Virus record (IMG/VR): IMGVR_UViG_3300034095_000312
Coordinates: 1-37,034 of that record
DNA length: 37,034 nucleotides
DNA from: a virus
Strand: one strand, 5' to 3'
Shown: positions 4,439-8,854 of the stretch, piece by piece
Position numbering within the stretch: the first letter of the stretch is position 1
Layout of the letters: each line of letters opens with the position of its first letter
Notes under the pieces: model-generated
What the model was told of the DNA's origin: nothing
The model's database searches: none
Seen by the model: only the letters and a program-made list of their open reading frames with translations
Made by a program: the position numbers and the translations under genes

Positions 4439-5098
4439 TTACTTATATAAATGTTCAATGGGGTATGATGTGTCTAAATAACATTCAAACCCATGCACTG
4501 CTGCTCTAACAAAAAATGCTCTGTCTTCCCAAGTAGTACATGATAAATTGTAAATTGGATTATAGTTTACACCAGCTAATAATACGTTTCTTTTAATTAA
4601 ATAACACCCGCCAATCATACCAACTTTGTACAATCCGGGTGTTCTAAATAGTCCTATAGGAAAATTACCAAACTCATAAAAATCAGACATCCATGCATTT
4701 GGCATCTCTTCTTCACTAGATTTCCATTTAGTCCAAATTACTTCGCCAACAATGTCTTTATCTAATGATAGTAGATGCTGTAGCATATCAGGGTGGGCAA
4801 TCTGATCACTATCAAATGTTAAAAAATAATCGTAGTTATTAACTTTTGCGTAATTTAATAACATATTACGCATAATTCCAACTTCTTTTAAATTCTTAGG
4901 ATTCCATATATGCGGTTTATATAGTGTGCTAGTGTTAAACTCTATATACTCGTTATCATTTAACAATGGTTTTAAATGCGGAGAATTATGTAGTATAAAG
5001 AATAAATCAAAATCACCTTCCATTTCTCGTAATGCTGTAATATACTGTTCAAAAATTTCAGTAGTTTGATTCACTGGTGCGCCGACTAATATTTTCAT
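4439..5098 (-). CDS. GT-A glycosyltransferase-like protein
   Basis: This 219-residue protein opens with a beta strand (MKILVGAPVNQTTEIFEQYI) and carries YDYFLTFDSDQIAHPDML. D96-S97-D98 is a DxD metal/nucleotide-sugar motif preceded by a hydrophobic strand, as in GT2-like GT-A enzymes. Further blocks are GMIGGCYLIKRNVLL and CTTWEDRAFFVRA (an acidic pair followed by a helix), and the protein ends EHLYK. No membrane segment is present. It overlaps the next glycosyltransferase gene by 4 bases (ATGA) and sits between fibre genes. It could transfer sugar to virion adhesins or modify host glycans. Donor and acceptor cannot be read from the sequence. Confidence 0.75.
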   Translation of the reverse strand: MKILVGAPVNQTTEIFEQYITALREMEGDFDLFFILHNSPHLKPLLNDNEYIEFNTSTLYKPHIWNPKNLKEVGIMRNMLLNYAKVNNYDYFLTFDSDQIAHPDMLQHLLSLDKDIVGEVIWTKWKSSEEEMPNAWMSDFYEFGNFPIGLFRTPGLYKVGMIGGCYLIKRNVLLAGVNYNPIYNLSCTTWEDRAFFVRAAVHGFECYLDTSYPIEHLYK

Positions 5099-5667
5099 AA
5101 ATTAACCAACGAATACAAATCAAACCCACCCTTGTAGTGGTGTAATGCAGAATTCCAAATTACATACGCTGGGATATTATATGTTTGCGTCAATGTAAAT
5201 GCAAATAAGATATCTTCAGATGTAATATTATTGTTAGATTCACGCCATATATTCTTAGGTAACTTTTCAACTAATCTTCTATGTAGCAATATACCAGAAC
5301 CACCAAATATATTAGTTTGTTTTAACTCATACTTTCCACTTGGTGTATACTCTGTTAACTCTAATAGTTCAGTTGTATCTAGCGACATGTTCCATTTTAG
5401 TTTATTAGTAATACCAGGAACAAATAAACAATCAACAGTTTGTTGTTCTACAAATTTAAATAGATTAGGAGTTGCTGGATGCATATCAGAATCAAGATAG
5501 AATAACCACTCGGCAGTTGATTCATTTAAGAATCTTTCCATAAGTTGATTACGACCTTTACACACAGAATAACTTTTTTGCAAAAATGGTTTATGATTAT
5601 TATCAGTTAGCCATTCTACTAAATTTGCATCTATTTCGCCAGTATGTGGAATACAAATTTGAATCAT
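5095..5667 (-). CDS. GT-A glycosyltransferase-like protein, second copy type
   Basis: This 190-residue protein has the order expected of a small GT-A enzyme: an N-terminal strand (MIQICIPHTG), SVCKGRNQLMERFL, a hydrophobic strand leading to D59-S60-D61 in WLFYLDSDMHP, GGSGILLHRRLVEKLP, an acidic pair E151-D152 in SEDILFAF, and a late His pair (H176-H177). It overlaps the neighbours on both sides by ATGA, so the three genes form one translationally coupled cassette. It is clearly different in sequence from the 219-residue enzyme, which suggests successive sugar additions or different acceptors. This last point is inference. Confidence 0.75.
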   Translation of the reverse strand: MIQICIPHTGEIDANLVEWLTDNNHKPFLQKSYSVCKGRNQLMERFLNESTAEWLFYLDSDMHPATPNLFKFVEQQTVDCLFVPGITNKLKWNMSLDTTELLELTEYTPSGKYELKQTNIFGGSGILLHRRLVEKLPKNIWRESNNNITSEDILFAFTLTQTYNIPAYVIWNSALHHYKGGFDLYSLVNL

Positions 5668-6221
5668 ATTAAATCCAGCAAATTTATAATAGTGTTGGTA
5701 TCTTTGGTTAGTATTTCACCATTACCTATTATACACGATTGTAGAATATTCCAATTACGTTCATCTAATGGAGTATCTACAAAAGTTGTATAACCAACTA
5801 AACTAGCATCAACGGAGCAATTTGATATTTGTTTAATAGATGGTTTACTACATCTATTATACCAGTCTAATTTTTCTAGGTATATACCATTAGTAAAGGT
5901 CTCAAACAACGGACATTGTTGTTCTTGATATTTTGAATTAGTAAAACATGGAACTAAAACTTGTGATGTATCAATTTGTAAAGTGCGTAAAAATTGTACT
6001 TCCCAAAACTTAGGTAGGTAGCAATCATTTGTTATTACTAATACAACACGGTTTTCTATAGCTAATTCAGGCTTATCAGTAACGGTAATTTTTACACTAG
6101 GTTCAGTATTTGTATTATTAAATGGTGTTATAATATGAAATGAATTTGAATCAGCTTTCAATGTTTGATCTAATACATGGTTTACCATTTTAGAACTAGA
6201 CAGTACTATAATATCAAACAT
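5664..6221 (-). CDS. Unrecognised protein of the glycosyltransferase cassette, possible degenerate GT-A fold
   Basis: This 185-residue protein begins MFDIIVLSSSKMVNHVLDQTL and contains VVLVITNDCYLPKFWEVQFL. That resembles the strand-plus-acidic loop of GT2-like proteins, but only one Asp (in NDC) is present where a DxD would be. A later block, SLVGYTTFVDTPLDERNW, is also reminiscent of that fold. It overlaps the downstream glycosyltransferase by 4 bases and follows the half-Hint ORF with only two bases between. No Shine-Dalgarno site is evident before its ATG, so it may rely on reinitiation. A partner or inactive homologue of the two transferases is a reasonable but weak guess. Confidence 0.5.
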   Translation of the reverse strand: MFDIIVLSSSKMVNHVLDQTLKADSNSFHIITPFNNTNTEPSVKITVTDKPELAIENRVVLVITNDCYLPKFWEVQFLRTLQIDTSQVLVPCFTNSKYQEQQCPLFETFTNGIYLEKLDWYNRCSKPSIKQISNCSVDASLVGYTTFVDTPLDERNWNILQSCIIGNGEILTKDTNTIINLLDLI

Positions 6222-6223
6222 GA

Positions 6224-6469
6224 TTACGTGTTATGCATTAATAGACGTTCTGCAAAATATACTTTTGCGTTTGCAACTGATATATTACCAACATCGATAC
6301 CGTTAGGGTAATGAATTGGTTCAACTGAAAGTACTCTCACATATTCTAAGTTTTCAGATAATAATTCATCACCTACTTGAACATCTTTAGCTTCACACCA
6401 AAACGTAATGCCATCTCTTCGTATCCAAACTTCGTGTTCTGGGGTTGATTCAAGTACAATATGAGTCAT
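6224..6469 (-). CDS. Stand-alone C-terminal half of a Hint (intein-like) domain
   Basis: This 81-residue ORF aligns without gaps to residues 227-301 of the upstream Hint protein, with about 55 of 75 positions identical and the last 22 residues identical. It keeps block B (T9-P-E-H12) and the C-terminal H79-N80-T81, but lacks the N-terminal half with the catalytic Cys. It is in the same frame as the upstream gene, separated only by TAA and one AAT codon. Its own ATG has a CAGG site 7 nt upstream, so it may be translated separately. It is a partial tandem duplication: either a relic, a trans-acting half domain, or a source for gene conversion. Confidence 0.7.
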   Translation of the reverse strand: MTHIVLESTPEHEVWIRRDGITFWCEAKDVQVGDELLSENLEYVRVLSVEPIHYPNGIDVGNISVANAKVYFAERLLMHNT

Positions 6470-6472
6470 TAT

Positions 6473-7381
6473 TTAGCCTGTGTTATGCATTAATAATCTT
6501 TCTGCAAAATAAACTTTTGCATTTGCAACAGATATATTACCAACTTGAACGCCGTCATCGCAATGAATAGGGTCCACCGAGGTTACACCAGTATATGATA
6601 GATCTGCTGATAAAAGCTCATCATCAACTAATACATCTTTTGATTCTACCCACATAGTAACACCGTTTCTACGTATCCATACTTCATGCTCTGGTGTTGG
6701 CTCTACTATAGAATTATTTGCGCAGGTTATTCGTATTAAGTTATATGATGTATTGGTGTCTAAAACAAAAGTTACTTTTTCGTTAGACATTTCATGAGTA
6801 TGTGGATCAATTGCTTTTACGGTATCACCAACTTTGATTTCACCCATTGGTTTTTGTGTATTATCAGACATAGTAATTAATGTTTTTAACGGTAAACACA
6901 TCCACGTAACATTTATGTATCCCGCTATTCCGTTCCCTGCGACTGCTTTAATATATCCGGTACCACTACCTACATTGCCTGTAGTAGTAGATAGTTTTAC
7001 ATTCGCAGCTGTAACTACTAATGGTTTAAATCCAACAACAACAGTGGTACCTGTATTAAACGTCCCAGTATACTGCCCCCATGTTAATAGTGTACAATCA
7101 GTGCTTGTTGAACCGTTTGTGTACGTAATTAGTACGGTCCACGCTACTGTTGTATAATTTGTCCATGTGTAGGTTCCTGTAAAACCAGATACAACGACAG
7201 ATGTAACGGTAGGTGCGTTACTCTTACCGTGCCCATCACTCATTGCAATAGTACCACTAGGTTTTACAAACAAAGTACGGACAGTTGTTTGATTCATTTG
7301 AATAGAAGTAGTACCAGTTAACGCAAGTTCTACATTAACTTGATTTAAGGATATTGCTGATCCTGCTGTGGGTAATGCCAT
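6473..7381 (-). CDS. Virion structural protein with C-terminal Hint (intein-like) domain
   Basis: The 302-residue protein starts MALPTAGSAISLNQVNVEL, with TVRTLFVKPSGTIAMSDGHGKSN, an N-terminal module common in marine phage structural proteins. A beta-rich, Thr/Val-rich domain follows (about 55-160). Residues 162-302 form a Hint domain: C162-L-P at the splice-type start, EIKVGDTVKA, block B T229-P-E-H232, DVLVDDELLS, and the end H299-N300-T301-G302. The key Cys, TxxH and HN residues are all present, so autocleavage or splicing is chemically possible. Only Thr-Gly would be left as C-extein, so N-terminal cleavage or cross-linking of the structural part is more meaningful than classical splicing. 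The outcome is inference. Confidence 0.8.
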   Translation of the reverse strand: MALPTAGSAISLNQVNVELALTGTTSIQMNQTTVRTLFVKPSGTIAMSDGHGKSNAPTVTSVVVSGFTGTYTWTNYTTVAWTVLITYTNGSTSTDCTLLTWGQYTGTFNTGTTVVVGFKPLVVTAANVKLSTTTGNVGSGTGYIKAVAGNGIAGYINVTWMCLPLKTLITMSDNTQKPMGEIKVGDTVKAIDPHTHEMSNEKVTFVLDTNTSYNLIRITCANNSIVEPTPEHEVWIRRNGVTMWVESKDVLVDDELLSADLSYTGVTSVDPIHCDDGVQVGNISVANAKVYFAERLLMHNTG

Positions 7382-7382
7382 A

Positions 7383-8369
7383 TTATATCTCTATTTGTTT
7401 TAGTTGACTAATAGTGGTGCAGCTATCAATTTCTACAATTTTTGGAATTTCTTGATCTAATAACGAATCAATATAATCATCTACAGCGATTAACATGATC
7501 ATCAATTGATCTTTTGTTACAGAAACTTTAACTTTATTATTATACCAACCACAACTTTCACCATCTGCTAATCGTAGAAGTTTAGTCATAATAAACAATC
7601 GCCCCCAATTAGTCGCTGAAATAGTAAATGTAACTCCGTCTATATCAACCTCAATTGGAGTCATCTCCAATGCATCTAATTTATTTCTATGATTTTGTTT
7701 AAGTGTTGTCTTAATATGTTCAATTGAAAGTTGAGTAGGAGTGTATGTACCAATTGCTTTACCTGAGGTTAAATCCCAAGATATATCAGTTCCATTAAAC
7801 AATATATTATCAAATCCGGTATCGTTAATAATTTCTCCAACTTGATATATTTTTAGTGTATCGGATATTACTAATGGATTATTTATAGGCACCACACCGT
7901 GTTTGTATGCTAACATATCTGAACTTAACATATCATTAGAACCGTGTTGATTTAATACTTTATTAAATTCGCTGCTGCTCCAATTCAATGGACCTAAAAT
8001 TATATCATTATTTAATGTAAGCACAAACTGTTCAGTTCCTGCGTATCCTATAGTTTGATCCCATGGTATTTCTTTTTCAACAATGACTGGAGTTTTTACT
8101 AATAACAATTTTTCATCTAATTCTAGTTTAACTTTGTTAATATCTTCAACTTGTTCAATCCAGCTAAACACAGTTTCAGCAGTTAAACTATTATAATCAA
8201 TAAAGTTATGCGGATCTACTGAATTAAAATAAGTTTCTTTATAAACATCAGCAACATAGGTTGTTTCTTTAACTTGATATCGCCATGTAACTCGTTTAAC
8301 TACACTAGATAAGTTATCAACTGATGGAGTTGTATATAACGATAATATTTCCCAAGAATAATCTTTCAT
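7383..8369 (-). CDS. DUF7936/DUF4376-like tail-fibre-associated protein
   Basis: This 328-residue protein has an N-terminal block (about 1-85: SWEILSLYTTP, VTWRYQVKETTY, FIDYNSLTAETVFSWIEQ) that resembles the DUF7936 family seen beside phage fibre genes. A second block near 225-312 (IEVDIDGVTFTISATNWGRL, TKLLRLADGES, VTKDQLMIMLIAVDDYIDSLL) has the layout of DUF4376, often fused to or next to fibre-assembly proteins. The middle contains QTIGYAGTEQFVLTLNN. It shares one base with the S74-type gene upstream (TAATG) and lies 1 bp above the Hint gene. A fibre assembly or chaperone-like role is inferred. Family assignment is from motif memory. Confidence 0.6.
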   Translation of the reverse strand: MKDYSWEILSLYTTPSVDNLSSVVKRVTWRYQVKETTYVADVYKETYFNSVDPHNFIDYNSLTAETVFSWIEQVEDINKVKLELDEKLLLVKTPVIVEKEIPWDQTIGYAGTEQFVLTLNNDIILGPLNWSSSEFNKVLNQHGSNDMLSSDMLAYKHGVVPINNPLVISDTLKIYQVGEIINDTGFDNILFNGTDISWDLTSGKAIGTYTPTQLSIEHIKTTLKQNHRNKLDALEMTPIEVDIDGVTFTISATNWGRLFIMTKLLRLADGESCGWYNNKVKVSVTKDQLMIMLIAVDDYIDSLLDQEIPKIVEIDSCTTISQLKQIEI

Positions 8370-8854
8370 TAGTTGATACCTTTTAATTTGTTAACTTCAA
8401 TCGTCAGTTCTTTAATTGCTTCAATTAACAACGGTACTAGTTTTTCGTATTGTACAGTTTTATAATTTTCACCACTAATTGAATATTCAGTGCCATCGTC
8501 ATGTTTGCCAATATCAAACGGAGCAGGCACAACAATCTGAGGCAATACTGCTTCAATTTCTTGTGCAATTACACCAACTTGATCATCTCGATTAATATAA
8601 CCAAAGCTAGCAGCAACGTCATTTGCATTAAATGTTACTCCGCTTATTTTTAAAACTTTATCTAATGCATTTGGTATTACTTTAATATTTGTTTTTAATC
8701 GGTTATCTGAATAATATGCTGTAATATTGTTGGTGGCTCTAATCTCACCACCTGTACCAGACGCGCTTGTTCCCACACCAATTGATGTTATTTGGATTCC
8801 AACTCCGGAAGCAGATGCGATTGTATCAGTAGCATGATTTAATAAAATTGCCAT
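8369..8854 (-). CDS. S74-type intramolecular chaperone / self-cleaving fibre tip
   Basis: The 161-residue protein has a short shaft-like N-terminus (Ala/Ser/Thr/Gly-rich, 1-45). It is followed by S49-D50-N51-R52-L53-K54, the SDxRLK signature of peptidase S74 chaperone domains, where the Ser is the cleavage site and the Lys five residues later assists. Downstream are VGVIAQEIEAVLPQIV, KTVQYEKLVPLLIEAIKEL and a terminal coiled coil (EVNKLKGIN), all canonical. Such domains normally form the C-terminus of a large fibre and help trimerise it. Here only about 48 residues precede the cleavage site, so the mature product would be very short. It may act in trans or trim a tiny tip. That part is inference. 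Confidence 0.85.
   Translation of the reverse strand: MAILLNHATDTIASASGVGIQITSIGVGTSASGTGGEIRATNNITAYYSDNRLKTNIKVIPNALDKVLKISGVTFNANDVAASFGYINRDDQVGVIAQEIEAVLPQIVVPAPFDIGKHDDGTEYSISGENYKTVQYEKLVPLLIEAIKELTIEVNKLKGIN

What the first reader, a model, noticed from the sequence alone, without database searches (positions are those of the whole stretch)
6224..7381. Hint (intein-like) domain followed in frame by a second, N-truncated half-Hint ORF
A structural protein ends in a complete Hint domain (C162, TPEH, HNTG). Directly after its TAA and one AAT codon, in the same frame, an 81-residue ORF repeats the C-terminal half of that domain (about 55 of 75 residues identical, last 22 identical) with its own ATG and CAGG site. 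Readthrough would make one longer protein with two HN ends, and separate expression would give a half domain able to pair in trans. Options are a split-intein-like partner, a dominant decoy, a gene-conversion donor or a relic. Conservation of TPEH and HNT in the fragment argues against simple decay. I know of no described phage system using a duplicated half-Hint in this way.
Basis: partly seen in the sequence, partly recalled or inferred. Interest (0 to 1): 0.82.

Follow-up and report, generated by a model that had tools for sequence, protein, structure and literature searches.

The report
Displaced half-intein behind phage adhesin gene
A phage gene for a variable virion (probably tail-fibre) protein ending in a self-processing intein-like domain is followed by a broken-off copy of the second half of another version of that domain, most likely left by gene shuffling and then carried between related phages, and not a working split protein.

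Summary
Gene 6473-7381 (-) ends in a complete intein-type Hint domain (C162, T229/H232, H299-N300, T301). After TAA and one ATA codon, in frame, an 81-aa ORF (6224-6469) carries the second half of a different Hint allele (55/78 identical, last 22 identical). Four independent contigs besides the window hold the same junction; four others (three distinct sequences) lack the half-copy.

It is not a recent duplicate. Its body forms its own lineage, about 70% identical to every full-length allele. Its last 22 codons and the intergenic start match resident Hint genes of fragment-free phages (window versus L008: 1 difference in 66 nt, same TAATCATG). The block from the main Hint C-half into the fragment is ~98.5-100% identical between phages whose flanks are ~75-90% identical. 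The Ig-like passenger is swapped between near-identical backbones.

Best reading: an orphan 3' end displaced when another Hint allele replaced the resident one. It now rides in a homologous-recombination cassette and supplies the right-hand crossover arm, comparable with Rhs/CDI/MafB orphan modules. A split intein is unlikely: no C-extein, no partner N-half, weak ribosome site. Low-level expression or a decoy role is not excluded. Selection on the half-copy could not be tested with power.

The parts
7211..7381 (-). N-terminal virion domain (residues 1-57) of the Hint protein; left conserved arm
   Evidence: phrog_26817/26746 hits; the same domain heads many unrelated C-termini in L018-L071, one with a Pfam Gly_rich_2 C-terminus
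6899..7210 (-). Variable Ig-like-looking passenger (residues 58-161)
   Evidence: 60% nt identity to L005 although the upstream gene is 98.9% and the downstream glycosyltransferase-like gene 100% identical; beta-rich, fold not confirmed
6473..6898 (-). Complete intein-type Hint domain: C162, T229/H232, H299-N300, T301 G302 stop
   Evidence: Pfam Hint 7.5e-6, Intein_splicing 9.3e-6, both below the curated cut-off; motif residues invariant in A1; PDB profile hits to BIL domains 6tmm, 6y75, 2lwy
6470..6472 (-). Single ATA codon between TAA and the fragment's ATG
6224..6469 (-). Orphan half-Hint ORF (81 aa): blocks B to G, no block A Cys
   Evidence: present complete in L001, L003, L004, cut off at the contig end in L002
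6293..6469 (-). Fragment body: separate allele lineage shared by all fragment-bearing phages
   Evidence: 0-4 nt differences among fragments, 53-61 per 168 nt to any full-length allele; own clade, support 0.971
6224..6292 (-). Fragment tail: resident-type 3' end, crossover zone
   Evidence: 1 nt difference to the L008 resident tail, 9-13 to the L004/L003 fragment tails; body and tail trees disagree
6300..6700 (-). Recently exchanged block spanning the main Hint C-half and the fragment body
   Evidence: 5 and 6 differences in 401 nt to L003 and L004 versus about 20% upstream; Fisher P about 2e-28 and 2e-30
5664..6221 (-). Next gene (185 aa, unknown), starts TAATCATG directly after the fragment
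   Evidence: follows a Hint gene without the fragment in L005, L008 and L010

Best explanation
The 81-aa ORF is the displaced 3' end (orphan half-Hint module) of an earlier or foreign Hint allele. A different full Hint gene came to lie upstream of it by a non-homologous crossover just after its stop codon. The arrangement then spread among related phages by homologous recombination in conserved stretches: the left crossover in or before the Hint domain, the right one in the ~66-nt conserved tail of the fragment. The recombination scar therefore falls in the orphan half, and the functional Hint upstream keeps its own 3' end. The main gene is a variable virion protein, probably a tail adhesin, whose complete Hint domain probably cleaves or splices itself at C162/N300, leaving at most Thr-Gly behind. 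Shown: fragment belongs to another allele lineage, resident tails, shared block, passenger swapping, presence/absence. Inferred: order of events, autoprocessing, and that the half-copy has no protein function of its own.
For: (1) The fragment body is equally far from every full-length allele (53-61 nt per 168; own clade), so it is not a recent copy of its neighbour. (2) The fragment tail plus TAATCATG matches the 3' end of the single Hint gene in L008 (1 nt of 66), and tails differ between phages while bodies do not (Fisher P 2.5e-5, 5.8e-5, 6e-3). (3) Block 6300-6700 is about 98.5-99% identical to L003/L004 while flanks are about 75-90%. (4) L005 has the same Hint C-half without the fragment and with a differing tail, the expected clean exchange. 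(5) The passenger is swapped between nearly identical backbones (W versus L005), and W and L001 differ almost only in the Hint N-half. (6) Known analogues: Rhs orphan fragments (PMC3967940) and MafB-CT cassettes beginning with a truncated BIL (PMC4287609).
Against: No full-length donor allele with the fragment's body was found. The reading frame and all motif residues are intact in all three other complete copies, and the fragment is not accelerated, as expected if it were still useful or simply young. It has an ATG and a weak possible coupling site. Only nine contigs, possibly from few sites, support the comparison.
Confidence: 0.72

Rival explanations
1. Expressed half-Hint: the fragment is translated by reinitiation after the TAA and binds the N-half of nascent Hint domains, slowing, blocking or replacing the C-half (decoy or regulator of processing).
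For: In-frame ATG 3 nt past the stop, weak AGG upstream, intact T/H, HN and T+1 residues, three other complete copies all open, no acceleration.
Against: Predicted ribosome pairing weak (-1.9 kcal/mol against -3 to -9 for most neighbours); four contigs with a full Hint gene (three distinct sequences) live without it; the only amino-acid changes among copies (P to S, V to I) hit residues invariant in the full-length alleles; the split lies before block B, not between B and F as in natural split inteins (PMC4031507).
Confidence: 0.14
2. True split intein: the fragment is a C-intein that trans-splices.
For: Carries blocks B, F and G with HN|T.
Against: Stop codon directly after Thr+1, so nothing to ligate; no unpaired N-intein among ORFs of the held loci and only two Hint matches in the whole window record.
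Confidence: 0.02
3. Recent local duplication of the main Hint C-half followed by divergence.
For: Tandem, same frame, identical last 22 residues.
Against: The fragment body differs from the main C-half by about 60 of 168 nt, as far as from any allele, while the fragment is nearly constant across phages.
Confidence: 0.06
4. Assembly chimera of two strain variants.
For: Contig L002 breaks 28 nt into the fragment region and another contig begins in the next gene, so the locus is hard to assemble.
Against: The identical 28-nt junction is in four other contigs, and L003 and L004 have about 80% identical flanks and different passengers.
Confidence: 0.04

Closest known systems
Orphan rhs-CT / CdiA-CT modules (Salmonella rhs, PMC3967940)
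   Same: Displaced 3' fragment of a modular gene lying downstream of a full-length 'main' gene, usually without its own start signals, recombining through shared sequence
   Different: The orphan here is half an autoprocessing domain with no toxin or immunity gene, in a phage virion gene, and it has an in-frame ATG
mafB-CT cassettes of Neisseria (PMC4287609)
   Same: Downstream cassettes start with an N-truncated intein-like (BIL) domain
   Different: MafB cassettes lack only about 7 residues of the BIL and go on into a variable toxin; here about 65 residues are missing and nothing follows the domain
Class 1 mini-inteins / A-type BIL domains (PMC4031507)
   Same: Cys1, TxxH, HN; about 140 residues, no endonuclease
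   Different: C-extein is only Thr or Thr-Gly; F:4 is Asn and F:13 is Lys in my own by-eye alignment to block F, where Asp and His are commonest
Hint domains in other phage structural-type proteins (phage NCTB 'large intein domain protein'; contigs L084-L094)
   Same: Similar N-terminal domain + Hint in L084-L094; protein ending shortly after VHN in NCTB
   Different: L084-L094 have a C-terminal fn3-like extein after THN-K; none of the 12 loci has a downstream half-Hint

Membership tests
Class 1 intein (main gene) | Cys/Ser1, Thr B:7 and His B:10, His-Asn at the end, Cys/Ser/Thr +1 | tested here: met
   C162, T229, H232, H299, N300, T301 invariant in 6 alleles; motif definition from PMC4031507
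Class 1 intein (main gene) | Interrupts a host protein with N- and C-exteins that are ligated | tested here: not met
   C-extein is 1-2 residues; ligation itself untested
A-type BIL | HN end but no +1 nucleophile | tested here: not met
   Thr at +1 in all alleles and fragments; Thr as +1 nucleophile and BIL definition from PMC4031507
Hint superfamily | Profile match and fold | tested here: inconclusive
   Pfam Hint 7.5e-6 and Intein_splicing 9.3e-6, below curated cut-offs; PDB BIL chains 7e-4 to 2.5e-3; AlphaFold models unusable
Natural split intein (fragment) | Complementary N-intein encoded elsewhere and a C-extein to ligate | tested here: not met
   No C-extein; no unpaired N-half in held loci or the window record
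Orphan C-terminal module (Rhs/CDI/Maf type) | Displaced 3' fragment of another allele downstream of a full-length gene | tested here: met
Orphan C-terminal module (Rhs/CDI/Maf type) | Encodes a toxin with linked immunity gene | tested here: not met
   Fragment holds only Hint; the next gene has no Pfam or PHROG hit and follows fragment-free alleles too
Orphan C-terminal module (Rhs/CDI/Maf type) | Recombination with the main gene restores expression | not testable with these tools
   No full-length gene carrying the fragment's body was found

The most novel reading that the evidence does not exclude
The half-Hint is kept because it works: either as a sacrificial homology arm that lets adhesin alleles move between phages without disturbing the active Hint, or as a translated half-domain that modulates autoprocessing of the virion protein in trans.
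Probability: 0.15. Interest if true: 0.65.

Novelty: new variant of a known kind. Interest (0 to 1): 0.4.

Why it matters
It shows a likely adhesin locus of environmental phages caught in the act of module exchange, with an intein-type domain as the conserved recombination platform and an orphan half-domain as the scar. It links phage tail diversification to the orphan-module logic known from bacterial polymorphic toxins, and it points to a little-studied class of phage virion proteins that end in a self-processing domain.

Tried and rejected
AlphaFold models of the main protein (pLDDT 37) and of the fragment (47) were too poor to use. The genome-contig scan gave no relative. Megablast of window 1-25000 against known phages gave no match; tblastn against phages found only helicase, terminase and similar inteins, tail-protein N-termini, and NCTB. 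Relatives could not be drawn for a virus record. No held paper was found on half-Hint genes in phages; the paper I recalled on fractured genes and split inteins is not held. dN/dS on the fragment has too few post-displacement changes to decide.

Full report
OBSERVATION. All coordinates are on the minus strand of a 37,034-base IMG/VR virus record. The gene 6473-7381 encodes 302 residues. Residues 1-57 are a virion N-terminal domain, about 58-161 a variable beta-rich passenger, and 162-302 an intein-type Hint domain. After HNTG-TAA comes one ATA codon, then ATG and an 81-residue ORF (6224-6469) in the same frame, ending HNT-TAA; the next gene starts TCATG. The half-copy has 55 of 78 residues in common with the main C-half, including the last 22.

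WHAT THE DOMAIN IS. Pfam Hint and Intein_splicing match below their cut-offs at about 1e-5, and an A1 profile finds BIL structures 6tmm, 6y75 and 2lwy (that 6tmm and 6y75 are BIL domains is my own reading of the entries). Cys162, Thr229, His232, His299, Asn300 and Thr301 are invariant in six alleles. By the definitions in PMC4031507 the +1 Thr makes it class 1 intein-like and not an A-type BIL, but the C-extein is only Thr or Thr-Gly. Autoprocessing is therefore likely but inferred. The window carries many tail-fibre and virion structural families, and the N-terminal domain heads many other C-termini, one of them with a Pfam Gly_rich_2 domain, so a virion adhesin is the likely setting (inference).

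RELATIVES. Profile and pattern scans of 2.9 million viral contigs found eight contigs with this Hint family besides the window. The fragment is complete in L001, L003 and L004, cut by the contig end in L002, and absent in L005, L008, L009 (its Hint protein is identical to that of L008) and L010. The exact junction is found in four other contigs, so it is no assembly error of one sample. Twelve loci with more distant phage Hint proteins (NCTB, L084-L094) have no half-copy downstream.

ORIGIN. The fragment is not a recent copy of its neighbour. Its first 56 aligned codons differ from any full-length allele by 53-61 of 168 nt, yet by 0-4 nt between phages, and form their own clade. Its last 22 codons behave differently: in the window they match the L008 resident gene (1 of 66 nt), including TAATCATG of the next gene, while L003 and L004 have other tails (13 and 9 nt away; Fisher P 2.5e-5 and 5.8e-5). 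The trees of body and tail disagree.

EXCHANGE. In 90-nt steps the window versus L003 or L004 is mostly 55-97% identical on both sides, but 5 and 6 differences in 401 nt separate them across 6300-6700 (P about 2e-28 and 2e-30 against the upstream side). L005 shares a nearly identical backbone with the window (98.9% in the gene upstream, 100% in the glycosyltransferase-like gene downstream) but only 60% in the passenger; W and L001 are nearly identical over 3.9 kb except 20 differences in the Hint N-half. The locus is a recombination hotspot. In the fragment-bearing phages the active gene keeps its own tail (W, L001, L002, L003 identical; L004 2 differences), and the crossover scar lies in the fragment. 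In L005, without a fragment, the tail of the active gene differs (7 of 66 nt).

FUNCTION OF THE HALF-COPY. Translation is possible by reinitiation but the ribosome pairing is weak, and the CAGG is coding sequence of the main gene that also occurs in fragment-free L005. The fragment is not accelerated compared with full-length alleles, but its post-displacement history holds only four substitutions in the body, so neither selection nor neutrality can be claimed. A split-intein role has no C-extein to serve and no N-half partner.

COMPARISON. The closest known arrangement is the orphan 3' module of Rhs (PMC3967940) and, closest in anatomy, the mafB-CT cassettes that start with a truncated BIL (PMC4287609). 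The arrangement works like these; full membership is not claimed because there is no toxin or immunity gene. To my knowledge, and in the held papers searched, an orphan half-Hint behind a phage virion gene is not described.

Noticed in passing
window 6473-7381 versus L001, L005: Near-identical phage backbones carry different passenger domains or Hint N-halves in this one gene: a hypervariable, recombining adhesin-like locus.
   Followed up: yes
window 8369-8854: A short S74 endosialidase-chaperone ORF (161 aa) here and in L001, L005, L008 is fused to a longer fibre-type protein in L003, L004, L010: possibly another displaced C-terminal module.
   Followed up: no
L010:3230-3260: The Hint gene's last codons are followed by an inverted copy of themselves (ATAACACTGGC TAAAG GCCAGTGTTAT), a perfect 11-bp stem around the stop codon.
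   Followed up: no
L003:4150-4180: The fragment's end looks like a 7-nt tandem duplication (TAATACA) that shortens HNTGL-stop to HNT-stop.
   Followed up: partly
L084-L094: Contigs with a gene that reads as a tail sheath carry upstream a protein with a similar N-terminal domain, a BIL ending THN-K, and a C-terminal fn3-like domain.
   Followed up: partly
window 4439-6221: Three overlapping genes after the Hint locus: an unknown 185-aa protein and two with weak glycosyltransferase-like matches; contig IMGVR_UViG_3300046011_003041 starts inside the first, as if assembly broke at the variable locus.
   Followed up: no
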